Part shown: one piece after another, positions 9,284 to 50,407 of the stretch
Numbering within the stretch: the first letter of the stretch is position 1
Layout: each line of letters starts with the position of its first letter
Source of the DNA: Spinacia oleracea
Taxonomy: Eukaryota > Streptophyta > Magnoliopsida > Caryophyllales > Amaranthaceae
Direction of reading: 5' to 3'
Assembly: GCF_020520425.1 (NCBI RefSeq)
Contig: NC_079487.1
Location: 109,216,141 to 109,280,140 of the forward strand
DNA length: 64,000 bases
Translations under genes and position numbers: made by a program
The notes under the pieces: model-generated
Seen by the model: the letters and a program-made list of their open reading frames with translations, nothing else
Told to the model about the DNA's origin: nothing
Databases searched by the model: none

Positions 9284-9398
9284 TGTCAGGTCATCCTAAG
9301 GCTAGCAGGAGTATAATTCGTTATTATCTTGTACTATATATATTTCGCTGATTCATCAATATAATTCAAGGCTTTAAGCATTAATAATAACCTTGTTA
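9284..9398 (+). repeat. 5' LTR of copia element, right half
   Basis: Identical to 14151-14265 and followed at once by the primer-binding site. Confidence 0.95.
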
Positions 9399-9415
9399 TG
9401 GTATCAAGCCAGATA
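9399..9415 (+). other. Copia primer-binding site
   Basis: TGGTATCAAGCCAGATA directly after the LTR resembles the initiator-tRNA(Met) complement used by most plant copia elements (TGGTATCAGAGC). Confidence 0.75.
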
Positions 9416-9444
9416 ATCTCTCACGTATAAATTTTTCTTTTCCA

Positions 9445-14028: not shown

Positions 14029-14035
14029 GGGGGGG

Positions 14036-14265
14036 TGTTACGGAAGGATGATGAATTAGAATTGGACTACAATTCTAATATTGGTATATTAGTTCTAGAG
14101 TTTAAGCTAGATTTGGATTCCTAAGTATTAGTGGTAGTATTAGATTATAATGTCAGGTCATCCTAAGGCTAGCAGGAGTATAATTCGTTATTATCTTGTA
14201 CTATATATATTTCGCTGATTCATCAATATAATTCAAGGCTTTAAGCATTAATAATAACCTTGTTA
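14036..14265 (+). repeat. 3' LTR of copia element (230 bp)
   Basis: Begins TGTTACGG and ends ACCTTGTTA. It is preceded by a G-rich tract and followed by the GAGAC duplication. The ends are TG...TA, not TG...CA. Confidence 0.95.
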
Positions 14266-14286
14266 GAGACTGATGGATGAATTTCC

Positions 14287-17200
14287 ATGTGTCATGTTCG
14301 GTACTTTAATGAAGTAGTGTGTGCGGAGGAAAAGGAGGGGGGTGTTCCTAGAAGTGAGAGACTGATGGATGCATTCCGTTCGGCTATAGATGATTGCGGG
14401 ATGAGAGACCGTGGGAGTATTTTTACTTGGAAGAGGGGCACTTCAGTAGCAACTTTCAAGCGTGAAAGGCTGGACAGGTTCTTAGCGGACGTAAATTGGT
14501 GCTCGACGTTCCCGTTCTTTGAGGTGCGGAACTTTCCTATATACCGTTCAGATCATGCACCGCTTGTACTGACTGCTAGTAACACATGTGAAAGAGGTTG
14601 TAGCAAAAAGCAATTTAAGTTTGAAGCCTTGTGGCTCTCAAACGAAGAGTGTGGCTCGGTTGTGGCACAGGCATGGGCGAAAAGCATTGGGGAACAAGCT
14701 TCTCAAAGGCTCTCGGTGTGTGCCGAAAGTCTCTCGGCATGGGCAGCTCACACTTTTGGTGATGTGAAAAGGAAAATAAAATCCACAAAAGAGAAATTAC
14801 GGTTAGCTCAAATTAGAAATCCTGATGCAGGTATGATTGCTATGTGCACGACGCTATCCGAAGAGCTTGATGAGTTGCACAAATTGGAGAAATCTTATTG
14901 GCACGCAAGAGCTAGGGCGAACGAAATGAGAGATGGAGACCGCAACACAGCTTATTTTCATCAAAAGGCAAATCAACGTCGACACTTTAATACCATTAAG
15001 GGGCTGCTGGATGAAGATGGTATTTGGCGATCAAAAAAGGAGGAATTGGAGGAAATTGTGGAGCATTATTTTTCTAATTTATTCACAACAGATTATCCCA
15101 GCAATTTCGACCAAGCAATGGAGGGTGTGACTACAGTGGTCTCTGATGATATGAATGTGAGATTGAATGAGGAACCTTCAGATGATGAGATAAAAAATGC
15201 TTTGTTCCAAATGCACCCTAACAAGGCCCCCGGACCGGATGGTATGCATGCTCTCTTCTTCCAAAAATTTTGGCATATCGTGGGTGTTGATATTATTAGC
15301 TTTGTAAAGAGATGGTGGCGAGGTCTAGTTAATTTGCAGGAGGTTAATAAAACATGTGTCGTATTGATTCCGAAATGTGATAGCCCAAAGCGGATAACGG
15401 AATACAGACCGATAAGTTGCTGCAATGTGTTATATAAGATTATCTCGAAAACAATGGCTAATAAGCTTAAACCTTTTTTGGATAAAATTGTCTCTATTAA
15501 TCAGAGCGCTTTTGTCCCGAAAAGGTTGATTACGGATAATGCCCTTGTGGCTTTTGAGATTTTCCATGCAATGAAGAGGAAAGGGGAGGGAAAGGATGGT
15601 AATGTAGCTTTGAAGCTTGATATGACGAAGGCATATGACAGAGTGGAATGGAGTTTTCTGGAGAGAGTGATGTATAAGATGGGGTTTGATGATAATTGGG
15701 TACGACGGGTGCTTGACTGCCTCTCTAGTGTGTCCTTTTCTTTCAAAATCAATGGGAGAATCTCCGGCTCAGTAACTCCTTCTCGCGGCCTCCGTCAAGG
15801 GGATCCGATTTCTCCGTATTTATTTCTGTTTGTTGCAGATGCTTTTTCACTCCTTATATCACATGCTGCTACTGAGAGAAGGATCCACGGGGCCAAAATT
15901 TGTAATGGAGCCCCCAGAATATCTCATTTATTTTTCGCAGATGATAGCATTTTATTCGCAAAAGCTACGGTTAGTGAATGCTCCGTGATAGCTGAAATTA
16001 TCAGCAAATATGAGAGAGCATCTGGTCAAAGTGTCAACCTTAATAAAACCGATGTAGTCTTTAGCAAGTGTGTAAGTGCAAATCGAAGGAAGGAGATTGT
16101 GGATATTCTGGGGGGTAAGAGAGGTAGTACAACATGAGAAATATTTAGGATTGCCAACAATCATTGGAAAATCAAAGAAGGTGGTGTTTGCAAGTATCAA
16201 GGAGAGAATATGGAAGAAGCTTCAAGGGTGGAAGGAGAAATTGTTATCAAGGCCTGGTAAGGAAATTTTGTTGAAAGCAGTGGCACAAGCAATCCCAACA
16301 TACATGATGAGCATATTTAAAATTCCGGATGGTTTGTTGGAGGAAATTCATTCTATGCTTGCTCGATTTTGGGGGGGTTCTCATGGGACTACAAGGAAGA
16401 TGCATTGGCATAGATGGGAGTCTCTTTGTAAACCTAAATCAATGGGGGGGATGGGGTTCAGGGATTTGAGGGTGTTCAAACAGGCTTTGCTGGCCAAACA
16501 AATATGGCGCCTGTATTCCAATCCTAATCCTCTGTTGCTCTCGGTGTTAAAGGCTCGTTACTTCAAACATGGGTCTATTTTGGAAGCTTTTAGGGGCTAT
16601 GATCCCAGTTACTCATGGCGGAGCGTCTGGGGTTCGAAAGCGCTTCTGTTGGAGGGTCTAAAATGGAGAGTGGGGAATGGTAGGTTGGTGCGGGTTTGGT
16701 TGGACTCTTGGCTTCCTGGGAAACCGTCGACAGCAGCCCCATCTCATGGCCCGAGTTATGATCCCTCGCTCATGGTTGCTGATTTAATCGATGAGGATTA
16801 TGGAGTATGGAGGTATGACATGATCAAAGATATGTTCACACCAGGAGATGCAAGTCGTATTCTGCAGCTACCATTGTCTATGAACTTACCATGCGACAAG
16901 CTGTTCGGGTGGCCATCAAAGAACGGGGAGTACAATGTTAAGTCGGGATATTGGCTGGGGCGTATGGGACATATCCAAGATGCTGATGCGAGCATATCTA
17001 GCAATGAGAAGGAGATATGGCGTACTGTTTGGAGTTTGGGCGGTCCACCGAAGCTATCCCATTTTGTGTGGCAAGCATTTAAGGGAAGTATGGCTGTAAA
17101 GGAAGAGCTATGTAGGAGACACATTGCATCTGATGAGCTGTGCTGCTGCTGTGGAATTGAGGTAGAGTCCATTGTCCATGTGTTGTTCGAGTGCGATATT

Positions 17201-17977
17201 GCAAAAGAGGTCTGGGAGAATAGCGAGTTCAATGCGCTAATCATAGCTGCTCCAAAGGATTCCTTTGTGAAGATACTGCTCTGGTTGACAAGCAAATTGG
17301 ATAGGTCGAAGCTAAGGGAGCTGCTAGCACTTGTTTGGTCTGTCTGGTTCTTACGCAACAAGCTGATTCATGCGCAGGAGGTCCTAAATGTTGATATAAT
17401 TGCAAGGGGCTTCGCAAGACTGGTCGAAGACTACGGTGTATATGCGAGAAAGGTGCACTGTGGGTCTGTTCTTGCGGGTTTACGGTCTGCATCATCTTGG
17501 GTGAAGCCTCCAGTAGGTAAAATTAAAATCAATGTTGATGCGCATATTCTAGCTAGTTTCTATGTTGGTCTAGAGGTAGCTGTTAGAAATGACAGAGGAG
17601 AGCTAATGCTTGCAGCAACCAGGCGCATAGAAGGGGAAATGGATGTGGAATTAGCTGAAATTGCAGCAGTAAGGTATGGTATGATACTAGCTAAGAGGTT
17701 TGGGTATGATAGAATATGGGTGGAAGGGGATGCAATGAATGTGGTGCGAACTATTGACAGTAACATAAAAGGCGAAGCCCCGGCATGGCTACTCTACGAT
17801 GATATTTGCAAGCTTTCTTCTCAATTTGAAGGTTTTATTATTTCTCATGTGAAAAGGGGAGGCAATACGGTAGCCCATCACATTGCTAGATGGGATACTC
17901 GTGGTAGTTCAGAATTAGTTTGTATGAATTCTTTTCCCCAAAGTGTCTCTACTTTGGTCGATTTTGATCTGAAATAA
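14287..17977 (+). pseudogene. LINE ORF2 remnant: endonuclease end, reverse transcriptase, RNase H
   Basis: Two overlapping frames (14287-16137 and 16076-17977) make up the 3' part of a plant L1 ORF2. The first holds the endonuclease tail (FNEVV…, RSDHAPL), then RT motifs (NKAPGPDGMHALFFQKFW, YRPISCCNVLYKIISK, DMTKAYDRVEW, GLRQGDPISPYLF, FADDSILF). The second carries the rest of RT (KYLGLPTIIG), the C-rich reverse-transcriptase-associated zinc finger (about 17130-17190) and a plant-type RNase H-like domain (INVDAH…, WVEGDAMNVV). Two single-base lesions are visible: a missing base near 14301 breaks the expected GDFNEV motif, and an extra G in the run at 16110-16115 shifts the frame. The element is also 5'-truncated, so it is inactive. 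Confidence 0.9.
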
Positions 17978-18010
17978 TATGCCTAGCCTAACTTTTCCCT
18001 AAAAAAAAAA

Positions 18011-18026
18011 AGTGAAGACAAAATAA
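18011..18026 (+). repeat. Right target-site duplication of the first LINE
   Basis: AGTGAAGACAAAATAA, identical to 5778-5793. Confidence 0.85.
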
Positions 18027-18447
18027 TTTATCGTGGGAAAACCGAGTAATAGGAGAAAAATCCATCTATCTACTAGAAATAATGATGAATATTTACAAAA
18101 AGAATATATATTTACAAAAAGATTATCAAGATTAACAAAAAGATTATATAACCAAGCTTCAATTCACCTCATAACTATCTCTCACTTAAATCTTAAGTGC
18201 ATGAGCTTTCAATAAGGAATTTATCTCTCTTAATTATTAAATTAACAATGTACTCCGGTATACGTAAAACAAGCATACTAGTACATACTTCGTATATTGC
18301 TAGGGTATATGTACGGGATCATATCCAGAGAGGGCAGAACATCAATGACAGAGCAAACCCTGACACCCAGGGCACGCCCAAGTCAAAGAAAGACTCTAAA
18401 CCCCAAGCCAAGTATATGCAGCCCAGGCAGATCAAACCTCCCCAGAT

Positions 18448-18557
18448 CACGTGTAAAGACACAGAGCAGAGCTAGGCAAAGCTGCATCAGTCCAAGAAGG
18501 GACCTGCAGGCTAAACGACAACGACAAGGAATAAAGTACATCGCCGTCATACACGTG
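18448..18557 (+). promoter_or_regulatory. Two G-box/ABRE-type motifs in the LTR U3
   Basis: CACGTG occurs at 18448-18453 (ATCACGTGTAAA) and at 18552-18557 (TACACGTGGCGG). The second contains ACGTGGC, the ABA-response element consensus. Both lie upstream of the LTR TATA box, and identical copies exist in the 3' LTR. Confidence 0.5.
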
Positions 18558-18595
18558 GCGGCATCTGAGTAGGCCAAAGTACAGAATAGTACGCC

Positions 18596-18604
18596 TATAA
18601 ATAG
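18596..18604 (+). promoter_or_regulatory. LTR TATA box
   Basis: TATAAATAG in the context CGCCTATAAATAGCACCC. The expected transcription start (R boundary) is 25-35 bases downstream. Confidence 0.75.
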
Positions 18605-18816
18605 CACCCACATCATTCATGATGGGACAGATTCTTACACACGGTACTTGCTCCACCTTCTCTCTATATTCCCTCTCTAAAGACTTCTTACCTATTTGCT
18701 GACTTAGGCATCGGAGGGGGTTTCCTCGGTTAAACCCCCGAGGTTAGCTCACGTTTGCTCTGCTTGACAGGGCCAAGGCACTCCGGAACGTCCTCCCAGT
18801 TCCACACCCGGAACAA

Positions 18817-18832
18817 GTGGCGCTAGAAGGAG
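18817..18832 (+). other. Gypsy primer-binding site
   Basis: TGGCGCTAGAAGGAGG begins two bases after the LTR end; TGGCGC starts are usual for plant Ty3/gypsy elements. Confidence 0.7.
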
Positions 18833-18877
18833 GGGACTTCCCAGACCTTGCCTCTAAAAGACCTACCCTCCCACAAA

Positions 18878-21800
18878 ATGACTGAGTCAAGCGAACCGAT
18901 AATCCAGCAGATAGAACCACCCACCTCTAGAAACAACCAGAGAATCACAAACGTACCTTTGTTCGGCATGCCTCAGAGTCTTGGTCCGCCAAGAGAGACA
19001 CCACAACCCAGAGCTATGGCAACCCCCAGCCAGGGCCAGGGCATCCCAGTTCCAACCAGTGCCTCACTAGCACGGTTGGGGGCACAGTTCTCACCCGACC
19101 AGATGCGCACAGCCATAGAAGTCCTGACCTTCCTTACCCAGACAACACCGCAAGCCCAGGTCGTGAGGACAGCCCCAGAGGTTGAGGTTGAGCAGAGGAG
19201 GAAACGTCCCAGACCCCAAAACAGTCCGAACGTCTGGAGGAGGAATCTGCAGCAGGAGATGGAAGGGGCTGACAGCCAGGAATATGAGGCAGAAAGTATC
19301 ACACCTAGCAGAGCTCAACCCAGAGCGAGAACCGAACAAGCACCCAGCCAGAGGCACCACTCCGGGTCAGGTATGCCAAATCCCACCCGAGCAATAGTTA
19401 AACCTGATAATTCCCCTTTCTGTGATGAGATACTCTCGGAAAAAATGGAAAAGATAAAAATGCCCACCTGCAAATATTCCGGAAAGTCAGACCCAACGAA
19501 TCACCTCTCTGCCTTTGGAGGACACATGATGCTATATACCAACACAGACTCTATGTGGTGTAAGGTTTTCCCTTCCACTCTGGAGGGGATGGCACAGAGC
19601 TGGTTCGGTAAAATACCCAAGGGCACCATAACCTCTTTCCGGCAGTTAGCCATTTTGTTTCGCACCCAATATGTGGCAAACATTGCCAGAGAAAGGATGA
19701 CAGGGGAGCTGATGTCAGTCATCCAAGGACCTCAGGAATCTCTGAGGGAGTACATATCCAGATTCAATATGGAGGCATCGAATATACCCAAGTTACAGCA
19801 AGAGGTAGCAGTCCTGGCGATGATGACTGGTCTGCGGGATGGAGAATTCAAGAGTTATCTGGGCAGAAAGTCATTCACAACTCTGGCAGAGGTACTGGGG
19901 AAGGCAAATGAATTCATAAAAAGTGAAGAGATTGGCAGAGCAACCTCACGACGATATGTAGCAAGTGAGAACAATTACGGTAGTCAGAGCAGAAAAGAGC
20001 CATACAAAAAAGAATACCCAGACAAAAGGGAAAATCAGCAGCCCAGAAAAGATTGGCACGGGCAGGTCAGAGGAAGGGGTAGTGAGTTCAAAACTGAAAA
20101 GCGAGGCAAATTCAACGAATACACTCCTCTAGTTGCATCCAGAACCCAGATTTTTGCTATCAGCAAGGAGGATGAGAAGTGGCAGAGACCACCGAAAATG
20201 TACAACAAATACAGGGACACGAAGAAGTACTGTGATTTTCACAAGGATCATGGTCATCTCACAGAGGAATGCACTCACCTGAAAGATAACATTGAGGACT
20301 TGATCCGAAGGGGGTACCTAACACAATTTAAGGCAAAGAGCTCATACAGCAGGACCTACGAAAGCAGGGATGATGAGGGTCGATTTGATAACAGGAAGAC
20401 AGAGCAAAAACAGAACCACCCAGCAGAGCAGAAGAGGTCGAATGATATACTGGTCATAACAGGAGGACCAGTCTACGCTGGTACTACAGCCAGCGGTGCT
20501 AAAGCCAGTGTGAACGAATTCAAACACCAGGTTAATTACCACAACTCAGGAAAATGGCCTGCCCCTCCAAAAATCCCACAGTGCACTTTTACAGAAGATG
20601 ATTGCAAGGGCATAATTTATCCCCATGATGACCCAATGGTGTTAGCTCTGGATGTGGCTAACAGAAAAGTCCATCGAATCCTGATAGACGGAGGAAGCTC
20701 TGCAAACATTCTATTCTGGCCAGCTTTCCAAGAGCTGCAGATTGAAGAGAAGCACGTAAAGCCAGTTAGCTATCCAGTAATTGGTTTCACAGGAGCAACG
20801 GTGATACCAGAAGGAATAGTTAGCTTACTTGTCCAAATTGGGCAGGGGAAAGATATCAAGGATGTCATGGTTGATTTCATGATAGTCAAGGTACCCGCAG
20901 CGTACAATGCCATTCTGGGCAGACCATTCATTCATGATGCAGGAGCAGTAGTGTCTACTTATCACCTCACCATGATGTACACAACGAATGATAACAGATC
21001 AGCTAAGGTCAGGGGAAACCAAGAGCAGGCTAAGAGATGCTACCACACAGCCCTGAAACAACCACCCAGACCCCCGCCCCTGGCAGAGGCAGACATTCCC
21101 TTGTCCAGAAAGAGAAAGAGAGCAGAGCGTAAAAAAGACGCACTACTGGACATGGAGAATTTTGAGCATCGTGAAGAAGGACTGTTAAAACCAGCCCCAG
21201 CAGAAGAAACAGAGGAGATAGAGCTGGAAGAAGGAGTAGAGGACAGAACAGTCCGAATTGGCACAGATATAGACCTTTCCCTGAGGGTAAATATCATTGA
21301 TCTGTTGCGAGAGCACGCAGACATATTTGCCTTCTCTGCCGACGAAATGCCAGGGATTGATCCCAACGTCATGGTCCACAGGTTGAATGTTAACAGAGAA
21401 GTCAGACCGGTAAAACAGAAGAAGAGAACTTTTTCGACAGAGAAGAATGTAGCCATCCAGGAAGAGATCAGCAAACTGTTAGCAGCCAAATTCATAGAAG
21501 AGTGTGACTACCCGGAATGGTTGGCTAATGTCGTGATGGTAAAGAAAGCAAATGGTCAATGGAGGATGTGCGTAGACTTTACAGACCTAAACAGGGCTTG
21601 TCCAAAGGATTGTTACCCGCTGCCTAGAATAGACCAACTGGTGGATTCCACCAGCGGGCATGCCCTGCTGAGTTTCATGGATGCCTTTTCGGGCTATCAC
21701 CAGATCAGTTTGTTAGAATCAGACCGGAAAAAAAGCCGCCTTCATCACAGACGCCGGAGTTTACAACTACAGGGCTATGCCATTTGGCCTAAAGAACGCA

Positions 21801-24404
21801 GGGGCCACATACCAGAAACTGGTAGACAAAATATTTGCAGGACAAAAAGGCCGAAACGTGGAGGTGTATGTAGATGATTCCATAGTCAAGAGCAAAAAGG
21901 AGGGCGATCACATTAAGGATCTGAAGGAAACTTTTGCAACATTGAGGCAATTTGGTATGAAATTAAACCCAAAAAAATGCGTGTTCGGTGTTAAGTCTGG
22001 AAAATTTTTGGGATTCCTGGTCAGTCAAAGAGGAATTGATGCCAACCTAGAAAAAGTAGAGGCCATACTCAACCTACCAGAACCAAGAAACATACGAGAC
22101 ATCCAGAGGTTGACTGGGAAAATGGCAGCACTCACCAGGTTCATCAGCAAGTCCGCAGACAAGTCTCTCCCCTTTTTCCAGGTGCTAAAGGGAAACAAAA
22201 CATTTAAGTGGGGAGAGGAGCAAGAGAAAGCATTCAAGGAGGTGAAGAACCATTTGAAAAGCCTCCCAACCATAGCCAGACCAGAAGTGGGGGACATATT
22301 ACAGCTATACATCTCTGCCTCCAAGAAAACTGTAGCAGCAGCTCTGGTAGTCGAGAAGGATAAAATCCAGCAGCCAGTCTACTTTGTCAGCCACATCCTC
22401 AACCCAGCAGAACAGAGGTACCCCCTGATTGAAAAAATGGCCTTCGCCATCATGATAGCTGCCAGAAAATTGAAACCATACTTTGACGCGCATAAAGTGC
22501 AAGTGTTGACTAATCAGCCTTTAGAGAAGTCATTGCAGAGGCTAGATACCTCTGGTAGACTCCTGAAATGGGCAGTGGAACTCTCAGAATATGACATCGA
22601 GTACAAACCCAGAACCGCCATAAAAGCACAGGCACTGGCAGATTTCATTGCAGAGGCATCATACGAGGAGGAGGAAGAACCATTGGGGACTTGGCAGATC
22701 TCAGTAGACGGCTCCGCCGCAGTCACAGGGTCGGGCGCAGGTATCATAATGGTGTCACCAGAAGGCAACATTTTCGAATATGCTATAAAATTTAAATTCA
22801 AAGCTTCAAATAACGAAGCAGAGTATGAGGCGGCAATCGCAGGAATCCAGATGTGCAAAGCAGCAGATGCTAAGAAAATAGTGCTCAAAACCGATTCACA
22901 GCTGGTGGCCAGCCAATATAGAGGCGAATATGAAGCCAGAGAACCGTCTATGCAGAGGTACTTGGCCTTGATGAAAGAAGCAGTAGCCCAGCTAGAAAGC
23001 TTTGAGATTCAACTGGTTCCCAGGGCAGAAAACAGTCAAGCAGACGCCCTATCTAAGTTAGCAAGTTCGACATTACAGGACTTGGAAAGAACAGTGATGG
23101 TAGAGGTCCAGGAAGAAAAGAGCATTGACAAAAAGCCTGTAGTCAACTTCATTGACACTGAGCCACAGTGGTATGACAGTATAGTCTCATACAAGCTGGG
23201 AAGGGGCCTTCCCACGGCAGAGCAAGAGCAGAAAAAAGTAAAACGAAACGAGCATTGGTTCGTCATTTACCAGGGTAAACTGTACAAGAAATCATTTTCG
23301 TTGCCACTGCTGAGATGCATATCAGCAGAGGAGTCGCAACGAGTCATTGAAGAAATACACGAAGGAATATGTGGAAACCACATAGGCGGCAGGACATTAG
23401 CCTTGAAAGCTCTCAGAGCAGGATATTATTGGCCAACCATGGTAAGTGACTCTCAAGCATATGTTAAAAAGTGCGACAAGTGCCAGAAATTCGCCCCAGT
23501 GATCAACCAACCCTCTAATGACTTACAGCCAATCATCAACCCCATACCATTCGCCCAGTGGGGAATGGATATTCTGGGACCATTCACAGCAGCAAGCGGG
23601 GGAAGAAAATTTCTGATCGTGGCAGTTGACTATTTTACTAAGTGGATCGAAGCAGAGCCCACTAAAAGCATAACAGCCAAACGGATGAAGGATTTCATCT
23701 GGAAGAACATTGTGACAAGGTTCGGCATCCCAGAAAGTTTGGTCTTCGATCATGGAACACAGTTCGACTGCACTCCTATAAAGGATTATTGCGCTGAACT
23801 AAGAATAAAATTCGCATACGCATCTGTGTGCCATCCCCAGAGCAATGGTCAGGCAGAGGCAGCAAATAAACAAATCCTGGGAGCACTGCGAAAGAAGGTA
23901 GAAGATTTTAAGGGTGCATGGGCCGACCTTATTCCAGAGATCTTATGGTCCAACAGGACCACTGAAAAAGAAGCAACAGGAGAAAGTCCTTACAAACTAG
24001 CTTTTGGGGCTGAGGCGGTCCTGCCTGTCGAAGTGGGTCTACCTAGCTTTAGAGTGCAGTACTATGAGGAAGGCACTAATGAGCAGCGTATGAGAGAAGC
24101 GTTAGATCTCTTACCAGAAGTCAGGCTGCAAGCAGAGCTCAAGTTGGCAGCAAACAAAGAAAAAATGAGCAGGGCATACAACAAGAGGGTAAAGCACAGA
24201 CCCATGCAGGTGGGGGATCTGGTCCTCAGAAGAACAGCTGCCACTGGAAAGGGAAAGGCAGAGGGAAAATTCACTGCCAATTGGGAAGGACCTTACCAGA
24301 TCACAAAAGAAGTAGCCCCAGGCTCGTACCATCTAATGACGATGGAAGGAAGAGAATTGAAGAACAGCTGGAACGCCAACATGCTAAAGAAATACTATGT
24401 ATAG
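18878..24404 (+). CDS. Tat-lineage Gag-Pol, broken by one extra A at 21728-21734
   Basis: The first frame (ATG 18878) contains the Gag domain (YSGKSDPTNHLSAFGGHM…), a zinc-finger-like CDFHKDHGHLTEEC and the protease (DGGSSANIL near 20690). It also holds the start of reverse transcriptase (VDFTDLNRACPKDCYPLPRI, MDAFSGYHQI). In a run of seven A the frame is lost and it stops at 21877. RT continues in another frame from about 21735 (RAMPFGLKNAGATYQ, YVDDSIVKSK). It is followed by RNase H, a second archaeal-type RNase H (WQISVDGSA…, NNEAEYEAAIAG) and integrase (H/C zinc finger, D,D,E with FDHGTQFD and NGQAEAANK). The second frame ends at 24404. One base separates this from a continuous polyprotein, in an element whose LTRs show no differences, so a homopolymer sequencing error or a fresh mutation are both possible. 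The first in-frame ATG in good context sets the start. Confidence 0.9.
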
Positions 24405-32385: not shown

Positions 32386-32403
32386 TTCGGGAACATTCCA
32401 GAG
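32386..32403 (+). promoter_or_regulatory. Heat-shock element in the DREB2 promoter
   Basis: TTCggGAAcaTTCcaGAG gives four alternating pentamer cores, three perfect and the last GAG for GAA, on a correct 5-base period. It is about 130 bases upstream of the TATA box. A second, imperfect set (GAAGCTTCTGAAAATTTC, about 32562-32579) lies just after the TATA box. Confidence 0.65.
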
Positions 32404-32404
32404 A

Positions 32405-32411
32405 ACGTGTC
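32405..32411 (+). promoter_or_regulatory. ABRE-type motif in the DREB2 promoter
   Basis: ACGTGTC fits the ABA-response consensus ACGTGKC and directly adjoins the heat-shock element. Confidence 0.5.
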
Positions 32412-32529
32412 AAACAACCAGCCGCTAAAACTCATGACACACGCCTTAAAAGCCCACGTCATCGCATCAAATTATTTATTTTCCAAAATATCCGGTTTTG
32501 ACCAGAAATATCTAAGTCCAGAAAAGTTT

Positions 32530-32537
32530 TATAAATA
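32530..32537 (+). promoter_or_regulatory. TATA box of the DREB2 gene
   Basis: TATAAATA in TTTTATAAATAGCC, about 230 bases before the first ATG at 32759. Confidence 0.7.
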
Positions 32538-32758
32538 GCCTTCACGATTCTCTTGGCTGAAGCTTCTGAAAATTTCTGGTTTCTGCGCGCAATACAAACC
32601 ATACTTCTATACCACTCTTTTACTTTCTCTCTCATCAAAAACAAAATCCAAAAAACTTAACAAAAATCGAATCGATCGAAAAACAAATTGCCAAATCTTA
32701 ATCGTATAAGAAGAACAGCGGATTTGAAAACCGATTTTGGGTGTTTCGCAGTCGTCGT

Positions 32759-34686
32759 ATGTCCTCGGAGATTTCCGAAAGGTTGGTTTGATTTTTCATT
32801 TTTGTTTCATCAATTTGTTCGTGATTGTTGATTTATCGTTATTGTTCAGGAATTTGTGGGATTCTTTTTAGTTGTAAGAGTTGGAATTTGAGAAAAATGT
32901 TCGTTTTTAAGGTTGATTTTTTATTTCTTTCCTTAGGGTTTGAGTTTATTTGTTAGTTTTTGTTGTCTGTTTTGTGATGCGAAATGAACACTTTGGTTAA
33001 AGAACTGAAAAAATCTTTGAACTCCTTAGGGTTAGGATTAACTTGTTGATTTAGGGTTAGGGTTTCCACTTGAAATTTCGAATTGCGTATGTTATTTGTT
33101 GATTGGAACACTAATGAATGGAACGGTGTATCAATTTTGGGGGGAAATTGTTTAGCTTCATTTTATGCTTTGATGATGAATATCTGACTGTTGAAGTAAT
33201 TGTTGATTTAGGGTAAGGTTTTACTTGAATTTTCGAATTGCGTATGGTATTTATTGATTGGAACACTAATGAATGAACTGGTGTATCAATATGGGGGAAA
33301 TTGTTTAGCTTGATTTTATGCTTTGATGGTGAATATCTGACTGTTGAAGTAAATAGAAAAACTTAGCCTGTGATCTCGTTTGTTGCAGATTGTGAACGAA
33401 GTAGTTGTGTCGGGGGCAGTGGAGACGGGTTTTGATTCTAATTTGCATCGCCCTTGTTTGAATTATTCCTTCCAGAGGTGGTAGTTGCTGTTATAAATTG
33501 AATTTAGTTATAATTTTAACTCGGAAATTATCTTTAATTTGCCAGGATGGGCACTTTCCATTACGACAAAGCTTCCTCTAACACACATTGTTCTTCTTCT
33601 GTACCCTTTGATTGCACCAGGAGAAGGAAGACTCGGAGAAGGTGTGATGGAACTGATTCTCTGGCTGATACTCTTGCCAAATGGAAAGAAATCAATGAGA
33701 AACTCTGTGAACAAAAGGAAGATGGCAAGCCTGTTAGGAAGGCGCCTGCAAAGGGGTCGAAGAAAGGATGTATGAAAGGCAAAGGTGGACCTGAGAATTC
33801 CCTTTTTAAATACAGAGGAGTTAGACAGAGGACTTGGGGTAAATGGGTAGCTGAGATTCGAGAGCCGAACAGAGGTAAAAGACTTTGGCTCGGTACTTAC
33901 CCCACTGCCCTTGAAGCTGCATTGTCTTATGATGAGGCTGCTCGTGCTATGTATGGTGAAAGTGCTAGATTGAACTTGCCATATTACCCTGCACCAGTAA
34001 GGGAGGATTCCAGAGATGATTCTGCTAGTGCCTCATACACAACAGCTACTACGACTAGTGCCTCATACACAACAGCATGTACAACTTCTGGTAATAACTC
34101 TGATGTCTATGTTGGAGAGCAATGGGATGGTGTAACGGGTGGTGCTACTGTTAAGCGAGAAGACATTGAAGGTGATTCTGAGTTTGATTTTAAAAATGCT
34201 TCAGCAGGTTTTAAGGTTGGCACCCCAGGTACTCCTGTTGATAAAGAAGAGAAGGCAGTTGTTGATAACGGTGAAGGTGACCAAGGTGGCATTGACATCA
34301 ATGACTACTTGCATAACTTGACAATGGATGAAATGTTTGACGTTGATGAATTACTTGGAGCTATAGATGCTGGCCCTGTTTCCCCTGTAGGTAATACGAC
34401 AACACAAGGACATGATGCATATGGTGCTTTCAGATCTCAAGTAGAGAACAATAGTATACAGCTAGAGAGGCCGGAGAGCTGGTCGAATCACGAACAAAAT
34501 CCGAATTACTTTCATCTGTTTCAAAATCAAGATGATGTCAACTTGTACGGAAGTGTGAATAACAGTGATCAAGGCTACAATGGGGTTAACTATGGGTTCG
34601 ACTTCTTAAACCCTGACAGACAAGAGGATTCTTCTCTACCAGTCGAAGATCATGGCTTTCTGAATCTCGGAGAATTGGGGTTTTAA
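32759..34686 (+). CDS. DREB2A-like: DREB2A-type AP2/ERF transcription factor
   Basis: The main exon (33546-34686) encodes, from the ATG at 33547, 379 residues. They include a basic nuclear-localisation stretch (RRRKTRRR, 25-32), the DREB2-specific [16 protein letters not shown] block (69-84) and one AP2 domain (88-145: [20 protein letters not shown]…) with Val14 and Glu19 of the DREB subgroup. The C-terminus is acidic and Asn/Ser-rich, with a tandem [11 protein letters not shown] repeat near 156-177. DREB2 proteins bind DRE/CRT (A/GCCGAC) sites and activate drought and heat genes. An upstream mini-exon (32759-32781, MSSEISE plus two bases) joins across a 764-bp GT-AG intron exactly in frame to the 33547 ATG, giving a 387-residue form; I prefer that start. 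Heat-shock and ABRE motifs precede it. The mini-exon is inferred from splice signals and frame, not from a transcript. Confidence 0.9.
33389..33477 (+). other. Candidate 89-bp frame-breaking cassette exon in DREB2
   Basis: A good acceptor (TTTGTTGCAG at 33379-33388) and a donor (CAGAG|GTGGTAG at 33478) bracket 89 bases inside the first intron. If included after the mini-exon it gives an immediate TGA. Its length is also not a multiple of three. This matches the logic of the alternatively spliced exon of cereal DREB2 genes. Confidence 0.5.
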
Positions 34687-34689
34687 CAG

Positions 34690-35770
34690 TGGTGATGGGC
34701 CTCTTTGTACAGCAGCAATGGTGAAGAAATCATAATGTAGCTTCATGTAGCAAAAAACTCAGAATGGTATTTTGGTGTCTAGTTTGAGTTTGTTGGGTGC
34801 TCCAATTAGTTTCACTTGGTTCATTCTGGAACCTTCATAACTGAAGCAAAGCTTATTCTCAATAGGTTTTTGATATAAGAGACATAAGCTCTGTTCTTTC
34901 TTTTTTCCTCTTGTTCTTGCTAACAATGAACATTTAGGACTAGTGATGTGAAGCTTGAATACTTTTTTGAGGGAATGTAATTCTTTTTTGTACAAATCAA
35001 CTTTGCTGACCTTGCCTGAAACAAGCTACACTGACATCCTTTTGCAGTTCCATTCCTACATTCAACTTTTGGTGTTTGCCTTAATCTTCTTTTGCGCGAT
35101 TTGTTGTAACTGTGAACTTTTACTCGAGTCACAATTTTTCCAACAGAATATGCACTTTCCCTGAGTGATTGTAAATTGTGGTGCATTTTGGCTAGTTTTG
35201 TTGTGAAATGTACAGCCACGACTAGGCACCCTGAGTTGCTATAATTTTCGGTAGAGGGCTTTCTTATAGAGGCTTGTGTTTTATGTAAGTCTTTGCCTCT
35301 CGGAATTAATGTTAATTATTTTGACTTGGTTGGCATGTTGAATGCTCCATGTAGAAACGTTCAAACAGAACCAATTTTTGTTCATTCTTTTGCCATATAA
35401 ATGGAATTTGGGTACTTCTGATGTCTCTACGAATGATCTGGTCCTGTGTTCTGAAACTACGTTAAGCACAATGTTATTGCTTGTCTGAATGTTCTGTTGC
35501 AATCCAGATTTCACTGTTGTAATCATCCTTATCAAAATTAGTCATGGAGCCTTGTTAAAGTGTTTTAATTTGCTTAAATGTTATACGAGTAATTTTTTCT
35601 TTTTTCTCAAAATCATAATTTGTTCTCTTCATGTTTGATCAAGGTTCCTGAATAGAATGGTCAGGATTTACATTAGTGTCCGTACTCCGTAGTTTGATTT
35701 TTGGTCGAAAACATAAGTTTCACAACCTTTATTTTCCAGATCAAACTCTTGATATTTTGTGGTTCACATT
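34690..35770. other. DREB2 3' flank, no further gene
   Basis: AT-rich with short frames in both strands and no recognisable product. It likely includes the DREB2 3' UTR in its first few hundred bases. Confidence 0.5.
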
Positions 35771-36311: not shown

Positions 36312-36749
36312 TTATGCAGCAGAAGAGATATCAATGGACTTGACCTCATGCTTCTTTTCCTCCATTTTAGGCACAGTGACGGTAAGAACACTATTCTCCA
36401 TATTCGCCTTAATCTCCTCCATCTTCGCATTCTCCGGCAGCCTAAACCTCCTTAAGAACTTTCCAGAACTCCGCTCGACACGGTGCCACTTTTCATTCTT
36501 ATCCTCTTGCTCTCTGTTTCTCTCCCCGCTTATCTGGAGCACCTTTCAGTCTTCCACCTCAACCTTCACCTCCTTCTTCAATCCGGGTAAATCCGCCTTG
36601 AAAACATGGGCCTCCGGAGTCTCTTTCCAGTCGATTCGAGTGTTCACAATCGCAGCAGTGTCTCCTCCGGTAGAGGAGAGAGGCCGAGAAAGGGTGTTGA
36701 AGGGATAAACAGAGAGTTGTAGTTCGTTCAGAGAATGATTCCATTTCAA
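36312..36749 (-). pseudogene. HSP17/18 class I-like: Class I cytosolic small heat-shock protein with one in-frame stop
   Basis: A single minus-strand frame covers 145 codons. The alpha-crystallin domain is nearly complete: [27 protein letters not shown], then [45 protein letters not shown] and the C-terminal SIDIS. The codon at 36546-36548, directly after VEVED, is TGA, where the family has a sense codon before VLQISGER. No frameshift is present. The N-terminal arm lacks the usual MSLIPS.F start and is divergent. The product of the first part would be only 67 residues without a complete chaperone fold. A heat-shock-type motif lies upstream. Single recent nonsense mutation or sequencing error are the options. 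Confidence 0.85.
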
Positions 36750-36821
36750 AAACTGATGTTTCTTGAATAGGCGCGGTAAGACTAGAATAGGAAATCAGAG
36801 GAGTTGAGTTTCAATTGTACT

Positions 36822-43518: not shown

Positions 43519-43934
43519 TATCTCTCTAAAAACACATCAAGGAAGGGAAAGTAAAAAACTTTATCTCTCTAAAAAATAAGGAGAGTAATTCTCTCCCTCA
43601 AAGGGAGATCATTGGGGTGCAACCCCTCTTAAGCGGTCAAGTATAGCTATAATCCTAAACCCCTCAACCAAAGTAAGCGTTCCATTAATTACCTGCAACA
43701 TATGTTCCATCTTTAAGCTTACTTCATTCAATTTTGAGCTAGCTTCATTAAATCCTAAAGCAATCGGTTTACTGTTTCAACTGCCTTATTGTCCAAACTT
43801 GGCAAATAAAAACCCACTAAGCAATGCATAAAAATTACACCAAACATCAATCTCTTTCATATAGCAATCCCTATCAAGAAAGCGATAGCAATCAAATTAC
43901 ACCTAGTTCCTAAACCAAGTCCAGCAACCAACAA

Positions 43935-46262
43935 ATGGCCAACCAAAACCCAAACAACCAAAACCCCACAGAAAGGAAAATTATCCTTACTAGAAGAGGC
44001 CCAAGAATTACCCCACCACCAAATAGCCTTCACCCAGCAGATAATAGATACAACAATGCAATTATGGGTGGATTCAAAGATTCAAGAGAATTCTCTGAGA
44101 ACAAAATCCAAAATTGGGTTAATGAGTGGATCAAAAGAGATAACATAGTTGTTGAGAAGGTTGGGAAGAAACTGTTTCTTTTCTTCTGTGAAGATGCTGA
44201 AGACTGTATTAATCTACTCAACCTCAACCAGATTAACTACGACAGTGCACTACTAGTTTTGAAACCGTGTTTTTTTGGTGCAACCCCTGGATCAATGAAA
44301 CCAACTGAAACAGCCCTATGGGTGCGGTTTGAAGGACTCCCCTTCCTCTATGTCAGACCTGCTGTTGTTATGAGGATGGCGTCCAAACTAGGGCACACAC
44401 TCTTAGTGGAAATGCCAGATGAGGAAAATCGAGCGAGACCACACCTGAAGGCAAGAATCAGAATTAATTTAAGTAAACCTCTGGCTCCAGGGTGTTATTT
44501 TGAGTATGAGGAAGGACATCTTGCATGGGTAAGCTTTCGTTATGAAAAAATCTTTAGATTCTGTAAAAAGTGTGGTAGGGTAGGCCACAAAACTATTGCA
44601 TGCAAAACACCAATTAAAAAAGCAGAGGAAGACATTATGGAAATGATGAGAAGTATGAACGAGGGGGATGAGAGTGTAATATTTGATGATAATGAACTAC
44701 CCCTGTTCACAAATAAAATTCGAGGGCTTGCTCCCACTCGGAAATATACAACAACCATTCCAAATTTAACAGGGGAACCTCGAAGCCCTAGAGTGTCGAG
44801 TAGTAGTGAAGGGAAAAACAGTGATGAAGATATGGATGATACATCCGATTCATCGAATAGCTCTGGCGGATCTAATGACCCTGATACACCGGGAAACCAG
44901 TCAGATGCTAACAGGGGTGAAGAAGATGAAGGTGCTAACCAATACGGTGCAACGTCATTCAGAATGACAGTGCCATGCAACATGTTCACACATAAGGAAG
45001 GGCACAATGGTAACTTACTACAAATGTGCAACCTAGATGACAAAGGTAAGTGCATAATTAATGATGCATTAATGAGTTCAGAGGAATGTGAAGATAATGT
45101 GGGGGCCCTGTCGGGAATTATTCCGAACATATGTCCAAAAGATGATGTCACCTTTCCCAATCTGGAATTTTCATTCCCAAATATGCCTTGTCCAGATATA
45201 GAGCATAACATACACCCTTTTGGGCTATCCAATCTCCAACTTGAGGCTATGGGCCCATTAGGTGAAATCTTTGGCCCACCTGTTCCTAAAACACAAATAA
45301 ACCAAGTCCAAGGCCGACCAAGCCAATTCCTTGAACAGAAAGTTCCAAATAATCCAACCCAACCAATAATTGAAAATGACCCAATGGATCCCATTTGGGA
45401 GGATATAAACCTTGCTGACCTACATGAACCACAATCAATCAAACTCACATTTTCATCTATACTAGAAGTATGGTCAACTGAATTACCTCCCCTTAATTCG
45501 GATTCAATTACCTTAACCTCAACCGACAGACTTAGCCCACTATCACCATATCTCCTTGACCCCTTCATACCAATCCCTAATCCAACTACCATCAACCGCC
45601 AACAACACCCTTTCAACAACCCATCTAATCACATATCACCATATCCTCACTTTGAATCAGAAACATCATCAGATTCAGAAACATTCTCAGCCATGGTTGA
45701 CTCCCCCAACTCCCACCTTCTACACAAAAAAAGGAAGCCTTACATCCACTGCATCACCCCATACCCATCAGAAAATGATTCATCAGAACCATCAGACCAT
45801 GAGACTCATGATGAGATATCCTCCCTGCAGAAAAGCTCAACCAAAACCCCAAAAGTGTACCACCCATCATCTCCAAACCCAACCAAGCAACCTTCAACCA
45901 TCCAAACCTTTGAGGAAGGGAAAGTCCCCAAGAGCAAAAAATTGTGGACTTCAAAGGGATTACTAGCAGGAATGTTACACAAAAGTAATCAAGCATGGGA
46001 AAATCTGAACAAAAGAAAAACATTATCCAAAAATGGAGTGGTTACGGATAATGTAGGGAAGAAAAGGGTTGGCAAGGCAATCAGTAAACTACCTTGCACT
46101 GGGGATAAAAAAAGGAAGATGGAGAACAAGAAAGGTGATGCTGCAGAACTCAAACTGAATGAAGGAATCAACGAAGCTGTGGTAGATACATCACTGTCAC
46201 TTGGAAAGATCTGTTGTGGAGTTGGAGTGGGCGCCCCAAAGGCCCACCCCAATGAAATATGA
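43935..46262 (+). CDS. LINE ORF1: nucleic-acid-binding protein (DUF4283-like plus CCHC knuckle)
   Basis: 775 codons, intact. After a short Asn/Pro-rich start, residues about 45-190 resemble the DUF4283 domain of plant LINE and transposon proteins (ALWVRFEGLPFLYVRPAVVM, LKARIRINLSKPLAPGCYFE). A zinc knuckle CKKCGRVGHKTIAC follows near residue 212. The remainder is long, acidic and Ser/Pro-rich, and ends in a lysine-rich tail (GDKKRKMENKKGD). Plant L1 ORF1 products package the LINE RNA. The stop codon overlaps the ORF2 start in ATGA, so ORF2 translation may depend on termination-reinitiation. Confidence 0.9.
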   Translation: MANQNPNNQNPTERKIILTRRGPRITPPPNSLHPADNRYNNAIMGGFKDSREFSENKIQNWVNEWIKRDNIVVEKVGKKLFLFFCEDAEDCINLLNLNQINYDSALLVLKPCFFGATPGSMKPTETALWVRFEGLPFLYVRPAVVMRMASKLGHTLLVEMPDEENRARPHLKARIRINLSKPLAPGCYFEYEEGHLAWVSFRYEKIFRFCKKCGRVGHKTIACKTPIKKAEEDIMEMMRSMNEGDESVIFDDNELPLFTNKIRGLAPTRKYTTTIPNLTGEPRSPRVSSSSEGKNSDEDMDDTSDSSNSSGGSNDPDTPGNQSDANRGEEDEGANQYGATSFRMTVPCNMFTHKEGHNGNLLQMCNLDDKGKCIINDALMSSEECEDNVGALSGIIPNICPKDDVTFPNLEFSFPNMPCPDIEHNIHPFGLSNLQLEAMGPLGEIFGPPVPKTQINQVQGRPSQFLEQKVPNNPTQPIIENDPMDPIWEDINLADLHEPQSIKLTFSSILEVWSTELPPLNSDSITLTSTDRLSPLSPYLLDPFIPIPNPTTINRQQHPFNNPSNHISPYPHFESETSSDSETFSAMVDSPNSHLLHKKRKPYIHCITPYPSENDSSEPSDHETHDEISSLQKSSTKTPKVYHPSSPNPTKQPSTIQTFEEGKVPKSKKLWTSKGLLAGMLHKSNQAWENLNKRKTLSKNGVVTDNVGKKRVGKAISKLPCTGDKKRKMENKKGDAAELKLNEGINEAVVDTSLSLGKICCGVGVGAPKAHPNEI

Positions 46263-49200
46263 GAGTACTATCATGGAATTGTAGAGGACTAAAATGTGCG
46301 GACAACTCTACAATTCCCTTTCTACAATGGATGGTCCGCAGGTTCAAGCCACAAATTCTCTTCTTAATGGAAACAAAGTGTGCAGCTTCGAACCTTAACT
46401 GGCTTTTGCGTGGATATGGGTTTAATAAAAGCTTTGGTGTAGACTCAGTAGGCCGAAGTGGAGGATTAGCCATGTTTAGTTCCCCCACAGTAGATGTTAA
46501 TCTTAGTGCTTCATGTTGTAATTTCATTTCCTGTAATGTTGTAGATGTTTGGAGAAATGAATGGTCCTTAATTTGCCTTTACGGGGCTCCGGCCGTTTCA
46601 GATAGAGCAGGAGTGTGGAACAAACTGTCAATAGAAAGGAGATCACTCAACAATAAGGTAATCATCATAGGGGATTACAACCAAGTGGATAAATATGAAG
46701 ACAAAATAGGAGGAAGTCATATAATTGCTGGGTGGACAGAATTCATTCTTTGGAAAATTGAGAATGGTTTAATTGATGTGCCATTCACAGGAGTCAATTT
46801 CACTTGGTGCAACAATAGAAAAAGAGGTCAATCACTTTACGAAAGGCTAGACAAAGGTTTATGCTCTGAAGAATGGAAAGATTGTTTTCCAGAAGCATCA
46901 ATTCTAAACCTTCCTATTCTCATTTCTGACCACTCACCTATAATCCTAGAGCTGAAACCAGACAAAGGAAGAAGGAAAAGACCCTACAAATTTGAAACTT
47001 GGAGTCTGAAATTTGAAAACATGAAGAAAGAGTTAGTGGAAGAATGGCAGCAGACTTCTCATGGCTCCCCTATGTACAGATCGTCGAGGAAATTAGGCCA
47101 AATTAAATCAAAATCCTTTACCTGGTGCAGAAAGTACAAGAAGGAAAATAATTTAGATTGGGAAGAAGTCACAAAGAACACAGGGGAGATGCAACAAAAG
47201 ACAACAGCCACGGATAGTACTTCAACCTCACAGATGCAACTCGAGCTTGAAATTGAATCTAGGAAAAAGCAGGAAGAAGTCATTCAATCTAAGTTGGAAT
47301 ACTGGAAGCAGAGGTCAAGGATCAAGTGGAATACATGGGGGGATTCTCCCTCTACTTTGTTCTACAGATCAGCTAAGCAGAGAACAAAACATAATGAGAT
47401 ATTCATAATCAAAGATGATGATGGTCAATGGGTATCGGATAAGAAAGATGTTCAACACCAATTTACCAAGCATTTCTCACAACTATTTCGTGCTTCCAAT
47501 CAACAGGATGAACCAAGAAACTGTGTACAGGAGTTCGAAATTCAATGGGATGGTATGAAACTCAAAGATAACCACATCAGATTGCTGAACGTACCTTTCT
47601 CAAATGAAGAAATCAAAGTGGCAGTCTTCTCAATAGCAAGTAACAAGTCTCCAGGACCTGATGGGATTCCAAGTGAGGTTTTTCACAAACTTTGGGAACC
47701 AATTTCTGTTGACATTCTATCAGGAGTTCACACATTTTTCAGTAACCAGAAGATTCTAAAGGAATGGAACAATACCTTCATTACACTTATCCCAAAAGTC
47801 ACTAACCCTACCTCAGTTGGTGAATTTAGGCCAATTAGCCTGTGTAATGTAGTCTATAAGATAATTTCGAAGTGCCTTACAACCAGACTACGACAAGTCA
47901 TGCCACAGGTGATAGGCCCATACCAAAGTGCCTTTGTTCAAGGGAGGTTAATGGGAGATGCAGGTTTGGTAGCCCACGAGTTCATTACCCATATTAAGAG
48001 GAAAAAACATGGCAAGCAACCATTGGCAACTATTAAAATCGATATGAACAAGGCATACGACAGAGTGAGATGGGATTTTCTTAAGAAAATACTACAAGGT
48101 ATGGGATTCCCGGAAAATTGGATTAACATGATAATGGAATGTGTGACAACAGCAAGATATCAGGTGCTGATCAATGGTGAGCCATCAAACATTATTCGGC
48201 CAAAGTGTGGCTTGCGACAGGGGGATCCCTTGTCCCCCTACTTGTTTATTCTGTGTATGGAGGTTTTATCATGGCAAATAAGAGATTTAGAAAACAACAA
48301 CCAGGTCAAAGGAATTAAAATAGCGAGGAGAGCTCCATCAATTTCACACCTTTTTTTCGCTGATGATGCGTTGTTCTTTATTCATGCTGATAAAGATGGT
48401 TGCGAAAACATCAAAAAAGCACTGAATTCGTTCTGTGATTTATCAGGAGAGGTAATCAATTTGGCAAAATCGTCTATTATTTTCAGTCCCAACATTGGTA
48501 CAAATGAAAAGAATGAGCTTAAAGATTCCATGGCCATCACTCTTAAGGAGAACATTGGAACGTACCTTGGATCACCAATCTCGTTCTCACCTTCAAAGAT
48601 TAAAGATTTTCAGTTTGTTTGTGATAAAGTATCATCAAGGATTTCATCTTAGAGTGCGTCCTCACTTACTCAGGCAGGGAAACTGGTTTTGATTAATGGA
48701 GTTCTGGCATCCTTATGCAACCACATTATGTCCATTTTCCTGTTACCAAAAAAAATTACGAACTCTCTTGATTCTATGATTAAAAAAATTTTTTGGAGGG
48801 CACGAGGAAAAGAAAATGGGATGCATTGGCGAAATAAATGGATTCTGGAAAATCCCAAAGGGATGGGAGGTCTTGGCATTCGAAATGTGTCTATGTTCAA
48901 TAGAGCTCTTCTCTACAAATATGCATGGAGGTGTGAGATGAATAAGGACAGCATTCTTGCAAGAATTTATAAGGGGAAATATGGTTGCCTCCCACTGAAT
49001 GCTGGTAACACTGGCATTATTAAACCCCACTGGTCTTGGGGGTTTAAGGGTATATGTAGAGTAGCAAAAGAGTTCCATAAAGGAACGAGATGGAGATTAG
49101 GTTCTGGAAAGGACATTAACACAATCAAAGACAGGTGGACTCAAGGGTGTAATGTCAATTTTAAACCACAGATCTCTGAAGATAGAAGAAAGGAGTTATC

Positions 49201-50407
49201 CACAGTAGATAGCCTCATAGACCCAGAGAGAAGAGTTTGGAATCAGAATGTCATTTGGAATAGCTTCCCAAGATCTGATGCTCAAAGTATACTAAACACT
49301 TACATACCGGAAGTCAAAAGCAATGATGAACAATCATGGGCCTTCACACCTTCAGGGAGGTACACTGTAAAATCTGGGTATGCTTTCCTAATTAATGAGT
49401 GTGAAATGCATGGAAAGTATAGAGACACCAGTAAAATCTGGAAGCATTTTTGGGTCATCAATACACTCCACAAGTGAAAGGTGTTCATATGGAGGCTATG
49501 CAACAACGCACTACCAACAAAAAAAAATATCAATCAAAGAGGGATCCCAGTTGATCCCATCTGTGTGTTCTGTAACAAGGAACAAGAGAATGCAGCTCAC
49601 CTATTTCGTGATTGCGAATGGGCGACAAGAATGTGGCTTTCTAGCCCGTTGGGCATCAACACGAGGGCTGGAAATACAACATCAATCAAGGACTGGACCA
49701 TGCAGTGGATTACAAAAATAACCAAAGATGATATACCTTATTATGATACTACTAACAATTTCTTTGCAGGTTTTTGGGCAATTTGGAAGCACATGAATAA
49801 AGTCATCTTTCGAGGGGTAGATCCTAATCCAAACACTGTCATGGAGTCAATGCAACAATGGACCAAAAATGCACATATGGCTTCCCACAACAGAGTGGAT
49901 CATCACATGGAACCACAAAGGAGAGCTGGGATTGATAATGACTTCTATAGTTCCATTGGTATGAGGGATATAAGCAATACTTCGGTTACAGCAAATGTAG
50001 ATGGAGCATGGAAAGTGACTGATACCAAAAGAAACAAGTGTCAGGCAGGAATTGGATGGAGAATTTTCAACAAAAACACAGATGATACCCTGCATACAAT
50101 GAGCAAGCCAATAAGATGTACGTCAGCAACAGACGCAGAAGCTAGAGGCATCCTACTACTGCTAAAGTGGCTCAAAGATAAGGATTACAAGGAGATTAAC
50201 ATCTACACAGACTGCAAGTCGCTTATTGGATTCATGAAGGATATCAAAGAAGCTCCTAACTACCTTAAGAACATCATTGAGGATATTCTCAATTTAGGTT
50301 ACTCTTTTAATTATTGTAAAATTTCTTATGCTAGTAGACAAGCTACGTTGGACGCCCATAAACTTGCTATCCATGCAAGGGTGAGTGGTCTCCAACAAAG
50401 CAGCTAG
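46259..50407 (+). pseudogene. LINE ORF2: endonuclease, reverse transcriptase, RNase H, with two stops
   Basis: One frame of 1,382 codons interrupted by TAG at 48650-48652 and TGA at 49475-49477, with no frameshift. It begins MRVLSWNCRGLK, the standard start of the L1 apurinic-type endonuclease (METK, IIIGDYNQV, SDHSPI). RT follows: NKSPGPDGIPSEVF, FRPISLCNVVYKIISK, IDMNKAYDRVRWDFL, GLRQGDPLSPYLF, FFADDALFF. After the first stop come the RT tail (QAGKLVLINGVL), a zinc-finger-like C..C..H..C region (CVFCNKEQENAAHLFRDC), and a plant RNase H domain (VTANVDGAWK, TDCKSLIGF). Both stops fall where tryptophan is usual in relatives, so each fits a G-to-A change in TGG. Confidence 0.9.

What the first reader, a model, noticed from the sequence alone, without database searches (positions are those of the whole stretch)
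32759..33546. DREB2 with a candidate poison exon like that of cereal DREB2 genes
A mini-exon joins in frame to the main exon across 764 bp. An 89-bp segment with good splice sites inside the intron would give an immediate stop if included. Stress-controlled skipping of a frame-breaking exon is established for grass DREB2 genes; I do not know it as described for this type of plant.
Basis: partly seen in the sequence, partly recalled or inferred. Interest (0 to 1): 0.75.

Follow-up and report, generated by a model that had tools for sequence, protein, structure and literature searches.

The report
Spinach DREB2 gene's switchable leader exon
A spinach stress-response gene carries a small optional exon beside its start codon that appears to be used in a related plant too, but it probably tunes or re-starts the protein rather than poisoning it as the similar cereal exon does.

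Summary
The window is spinach; the gene is its DREB2A/C-type factor. The mini-exon junction is right: the spliced protein equals NCBI 'DREB2C isoform X1 [Spinacia oleracea]' over 387 residues. The 89-nt segment is not distinguishable from chance by its splice sites: good acceptor, poor donor, 323 of 500 shuffled introns hold as good a cassette. Homology rescues it: a DREB2 of an unnamed relative (P0005) begins with the translation of this segment, 17 of 26 residues, ending at the exon border (score 84 against at most 41 elsewhere in the window). So the exon is probably real in the spinach family.

'Poison' is the weaker half. Inclusion ends the first ORF after 9 codons, but the main exon has its own well-placed start codon and the DREB2 frame is open through the cassette: an upstream ORF or new N-terminus rather than certain loss. 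The disabling form needs a second in-phase acceptor at 33621, used in P0005 and, by inference, in quinoa isoform X4. No spinach RNA was seen; stress control is untested. Papers seen here describe regulated DREB2 cassette splicing as grass-only, while noting other splice forms in lily and Arabidopsis.

The parts
32386..32398 (+). heat-shock-element-like TTCnnGAAnnTTC upstream of the TATA box
   Evidence: in the window this orientation occurs at 2 places (32386, 34824) and its reverse complement at 1 (36456); function inferred
32530..32537 (+). TATA-box-like TATAAATA
   Evidence: transcription start not mapped
32759..32781 (+). coding part of exon 1: ATGTCCTCGGAGATTTCCGAAAG, MSSEISE(R); the only ATG in 32500-32781; weak context
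   Evidence: junction equals NCBI spinach isoform X1; leaders of this kind in 24 of the 120 listed proteins, spinach's own P0001 included (two regex false positives removed by eye)
32782..33545 (+). intron 1 (764 nt) of the skipped form
33043..33352 (+). tandem duplication (unit about 155 nt) inside the intron, ending 36 nt before the cassette
   Evidence: CTGAC branch-point-like site at 33340, 48 nt before the cassette
33389..33477 (+). candidate cassette exon, 89 nt (92 nt if the GT at 33481 is used, same phase); reads [30 protein letters not shown] in the DREB2 frame, stops after 2 codons in the ATG1 frame
   Evidence: homologue spliced in P0005; not seen in spinach RNA
33546..34686 (+). 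main exon; own start ATG 33547 (379 aa), AP2 domain
33621..34686 (+). main exon from the candidate alternative in-phase acceptor (75 nt downstream) that removes [25 protein letters not shown]
   Evidence: 5th of 44 acceptors; equivalent point joined to an exon-1-type leader in 8 of 120 listed proteins, 2 of them NCBI 'isoform X2', and to the cassette in P0005; use in spinach not shown
33772..34686 (+). first DREB2-frame ATG (MKGKGGPEN, 304 aa) left if the cassette is joined to the 33621 acceptor
   Evidence: quinoa isoform X4 (P0009) starts at the same residue

Best explanation
A conserved leader-exon switch, not a plain poison exon. Skipping joins ATG1 in frame to the main exon and gives the 387-aa protein (shown as an NCBI gene model). 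Including the cassette turns ATG1 into a 9-codon upstream ORF (shown from sequence). If the main acceptor at 33546 is used, ribosomes that pass the weak ATG1 or re-initiate start at the strong ATG 33547 and make an 8-aa-shorter, otherwise complete DREB2, probably in lower amount (inferred). If the cassette is joined to the in-phase acceptor at 33621, that start codon is lost and the first DREB2-frame start left is MKGKGG, a 304-aa N-truncated form (inferred; P0005 shows this join in a relative, where an initial M in the cassette frame gives it a new N-terminus instead). Stress may shift the ratio, as in grasses; untested.
For: Exact isoform X1 in the public spinach annotation, on a contig of the same length as the window's contig C1. 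Leaders of the MSSE..R type joined to the main exon or to its second acceptor in 24 of 120 listed proteins, P0001 included. P0005: cassette peptide, 17 of 26 identical, same phase, border exact, joined straight to the KRK acceptor, so most likely a spliced sequence. Quinoa isoform X4 (P0009) and Silene LOC141605733 isoform X2 (P0027) start at MKGKGG, as the cassette + second acceptor form predicts. Start contexts, lack of an ATG in the cassette, open DREB2 frame.
Against: No spinach RNA seen with the cassette; the 5 sequences clustered under P0001 could not be opened one by one. Only one clear cassette homologue (P0005; one contig, species unnamed). Two directed searches of the protein collection found no further one, though they scored only 12 and 2 candidates. 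Splice-site scores are no better than shuffles, the donor is weak, and the best acceptor of the region is a different one, 33476. X4-type models could also come from another first exon. Silene P0024 (MCGGFLGVLIQRW-KRK) resembles a cassette end, but its 3 best places in the unbiased scan lie elsewhere; against the cassette alone 13 of 2000 shuffles score as well.
Confidence: 0.6

Rival explanations
1. Grass-type poison exon: inclusion under normal conditions makes a non-functional mRNA, stress triggers skipping and functional DREB2.
For: Same topology as rice, where a 53-bp exon 2 breaks the frame and is skipped in heat (PMC5222869, passage); first ORF stops at once, 82 nt before the last junction; HSE-like site in the promoter.
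Against: Strong main ATG just downstream and an open DREB2 frame through the cassette; very short uORFs seldom trigger decay (recalled); no stress data.
Confidence: 0.2
2. Constitutive alternative leader or low-level splicing noise: the cassette is an old 5'-leader exon included at some rate without regulatory consequence.
For: Weak donor, shuffle control not significant; plant introns often yield minor isoforms (recalled).
Against: Residue-level conservation with P0005, exact border, length difference of two whole codons (from the sequences).
Confidence: 0.17
3. No cassette in spinach: the segment is a decayed relic of an exon still used in relatives.
For: No spinach protein with it in the protein searches; weak donor.
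Against: Acceptor AG, donor GT and the open DREB2 frame are all intact.
Confidence: 0.03

Closest known systems
Alternatively spliced grass DREB2 genes (OsDREB2B, ZmDREB2A, WDREB2, HvDRF1, LcDREB2)
   Same: Frame-breaking cassette early in the gene, upstream of the main AP2 exon; inclusion breaks the frame of the first ATG (rice as told in PMC5222869).
   Different: Different size (53 bp in rice); here a strong main ATG follows and the DREB2 frame is open through the cassette. Spinach has EIREPNRG; the LcDREB2 paper says NRG is conserved in its subgroup 1 but not in subgroup 2, where the grass splicing clade lies. Spinach also has MYG, which that paper gives to subgroup 3, so the markers disagree. 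Independent origin possible, not tested.
Lily LlDREB2B-L / LlDREB2B-S
   Same: Insert in the coding part that leaves a short ORF and, ignoring it, a truncated DREB2 (passages).
   Different: 198-bp insert; low-level, and the paper concludes the gene is not regulated by alternative splicing.
Arabidopsis DREB2A and DREB2B splice forms
   Same: Eudicot DREB2 with alternative splicing.
   Different: As cited in PMC5852537: alternative 3' site in exon 2 removing the RIM (DREB2A), intron retention in severe heat (DREB2B); no leader cassette mentioned there.

Membership tests
DREB2 (A-2) AP2/ERF factor, eudicot DREB2A/C type | single AP2 domain with [16 protein letters not shown] and EIREPNRG (motifs as defining features: recalled) | tested here: met
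   Pfam AP2 E 3.3e-15, one stretch; motifs in the translation; P0001 annotation
Grass-type spliced DREB2 | cassette exon between start-codon exon and main exon | tested here: inconclusive
   position and splice dinucleotides met in sequence; use shown only in a relative (P0005), not in spinach
Grass-type spliced DREB2 | inclusion removes the functional ORF | tested here: not met
   with the 33546 acceptor the 379-aa ORF stays, strong ATG 33547; lost only with the 33621 acceptor
Grass-type spliced DREB2 | stress shifts splicing to skipping | not testable with these tools
   no RNA reads available
Grass-type spliced DREB2 | belongs to the clade of spliced grass genes | tested here: inconclusive
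   EIREPNRG speaks against subgroup 2, MYG points to yet another subgroup; no tree was built

The most novel reading that the evidence does not exclude
Eudicots of the spinach order have their own, independently evolved DREB2 splice switch: a leader cassette combined with two in-phase acceptors gives a 2 x 2 set of mRNAs that toggles an upstream ORF, the N-terminal 25 residues and the start codon of a stress master regulator, so cassette control of DREB2 is not confined to grasses.
Probability: 0.35. Interest if true: 0.7.

Novelty: new variant of a known kind. Interest (0 to 1): 0.5.

Why it matters
Two papers seen here present regulated DREB2 splicing of this kind as special to grasses. A leader cassette in spinach and a relative would make the question testable outside grasses: whether plants reached the same control point twice. 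It could be checked in spinach RNA reads.

Tried and rejected
Splice-site scoring as proof of the cassette: rejected, not above shuffles. Directed protein searches for more cassette copies: P0005 residues 1-45 found only itself among 12 candidates; the spinach cassette frame found only P0001, over 37% of the stretch, among 2 candidates. The N-termini of the 120 listed proteins (of 2889 found) were printed and read by eye; eight were scanned against the window. Of these only P0005 hit the cassette; for P0024, P0062, P0094, P0114, P0080, P0104 and P0003 the 3 best places lay outside this intron. Cassette in spinach paralogues: none in up to 1500 nt upstream of the AP2 frame in L002-L006 and L008 (best score 30, against 84 in the gene itself, L001); the script found no AP2 frame in L007 (an earlier script stopped with an error).

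Literature: ten searches answered, listed/found: 2 of 2, 40 of 170, 25 of 63, 22 of 23, 20 of 40, 15 of 27, 20 of 1,100, 8 of 30, 12 of 43, 15 of 25. No listed title or start of abstract describes a DREB2 leader cassette in a eudicot; unlisted papers and subscription journals were not seen. Of PMC5382683 I read the outline and sections 3, 10 and 25; of PMC5852537, PMC4746569, PMC8087716, PMC4324062, PMC13388132, PMC7411622, PMC8483784, PMC7540533, PMC7765832, PMC5222869, PMC3591102 and PMC9144462 only found passages; none whole. PMC4746569 reports DREB2A and DREB2B up-regulated in heat-treated spinach; whether either is this gene was not determined. The Matsukura, Egawa, Qin, Liu and Vainonen papers were not seen and are known only through others.

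Full report
What is there. The gene at 32759-34686 (+) encodes a DREB2 factor with one AP2 domain. Its spliced product is identical over 387 residues to NCBI 'dehydration-responsive element-binding protein 2C isoform X1 [Spinacia oleracea]'. The window lies in an 894-Mb genome, C1:109216141-109280140, and the length of C1, 136,525,004, equals the contig length recorded for P0001. The mini-exon is therefore not a guess: it is the public gene model. Of 78 matches in the genome only this one is full-length; the next best covers residues 42-168 at 61% identity.

Exon 1 is old. Of the 120 proteins listed (of 2889 found), 24, spinach's own P0001 included, have a short leader of the kind [31 protein letters not shown]: 16 joined to the main start, 8 joined further in, at the KRK patch (P0117 and P0079, false hits of the regular expression, removed by eye; at least P0042, P0046 and P0070 look alike but were not counted; one search gives the same 24 once P0079 is dropped). 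They come from several eudicot orders (names; order assignment recalled). Two of the KRK forms are NCBI 'isoform X2' (Humulus P0110, Benincasa P0103). So relatives use two in-phase acceptors; in spinach the corresponding sites are 33546 and 33621, 75 nt apart, ranking 3rd and 5th of 44 candidates.

The cassette. Judged alone it fails: acceptor 2nd of 44, donor 16th of 74, 323 of 500 shuffled introns as good, and another pair in the real intron scores higher (the frequencies are recalled approximations). Judged by homology it passes. P0005, a 376-aa protein on a 1556-nt contig of source 'lgn' (that this source is assembled public reads is recalled), starts MIVLVVLGAVETNFDCVLHHPCSKISFQ and goes on RKRKTRRRRDES. 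The spinach cassette in the DREB2 frame reads [30 protein letters not shown]. They share 17 of 26 aligned residues, the phase, and the border; from IV to the border R the lengths differ by two whole codons. In six frames of the window this is the top match at 84, next 41; no shuffle of 5000 exceeds 38. In spinach an intron lies between SFQ-R and the KRK patch, so P0005 most likely records a spliced mRNA in which the cassette is joined to the second acceptor. Its species is unknown; from the KGSKKGCM motif on, among 21 proteins compared, it is nearest to P0004 (78.7%) and quinoa P0002 (78.2%). Its initial M may be an ATG or a predictor's alternative start.

What inclusion does. In the ATG1 frame it gives MSSEISERL and TGA. 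ATG1 has C at -3 and T at +4; the main ATG 33547 has A at -3 and G at +4 in either splice form; the cassette has no ATG; the stop is 83 nt before the main ATG and 82 nt before the last junction. Hence cassette + 33546 should still make the 379-aa protein by leaky scanning or re-initiation (inference), while cassette + 33621 leaves MKGKGGPEN, 304 aa, as the first DREB2-frame start. Quinoa 'isoform X4' (P0009, 308 aa) and Silene LOC141605733 'isoform X2' (P0027, 362 aa) begin at that residue, as this form predicts, although another first exon could do the same.

What is known. Rice includes a 53-bp exon 2 normally and skips it in heat (PMC5222869, passage). The LcDREB2 paper places the spliced DREB2 genes of its tree in one Poaceae clade and says Brassicaceae genes did not exhibit it (PMC5382683, sections 3, 10 and 25). 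[quoted passage not shown] No listing in the ten searches described a eudicot leader cassette; the lists were capped (see Tried and rejected). NCBI's isoform labels for spinach, quinoa, amaranth and Silene show that annotation pipelines already see alternative forms; their exon content could not be read here.

Verdict. A real exon with fair probability, a conserved architecture with high probability, 'poison' with low probability, stress control unknown.

Noticed in passing
34620-34786; loci L009-L015: A piece of this gene's 3' end (169 aligned positions: last codons plus 3' UTR) sits at 89% identity in 7 of 7 fetched copies of a dispersed repeat. The copies are 96-99.6% alike over their long shared stretches (about 800-2645 nt; one short 136-nt piece at 91%) and all 7 end in a near-palindrome followed by CTAGT, which looks like a Helitron that captured the fragment (Helitron hallmarks recalled). 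Total copy number not obtained.
   Followed up: partly
36312-36794 (-): Small heat-shock protein (HSP20, Pfam E 2.1e-20 for the downstream half; the upstream half had no Pfam match) with an in-frame TGA ([14 protein letters not shown]), next to the DREB2 gene: probably a pseudogene.
   Followed up: partly
33043-33352: Tandem duplication (about 155-nt unit, 89-97% in blocks) in the DREB2 intron just upstream of the cassette; could affect its splicing.
   Followed up: no
32386-32410: TTCnnGAAnnTTC heat-shock-element-like site at 32386 and an ACGTG core at 32405, upstream of the TATA-like box at 32530.
   Followed up: no
9391-24404 and 43914-50407 (+): Long open frames that look, by reading only, like retroelement polyproteins and reverse transcriptases; no family search was run on them.
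   Followed up: no
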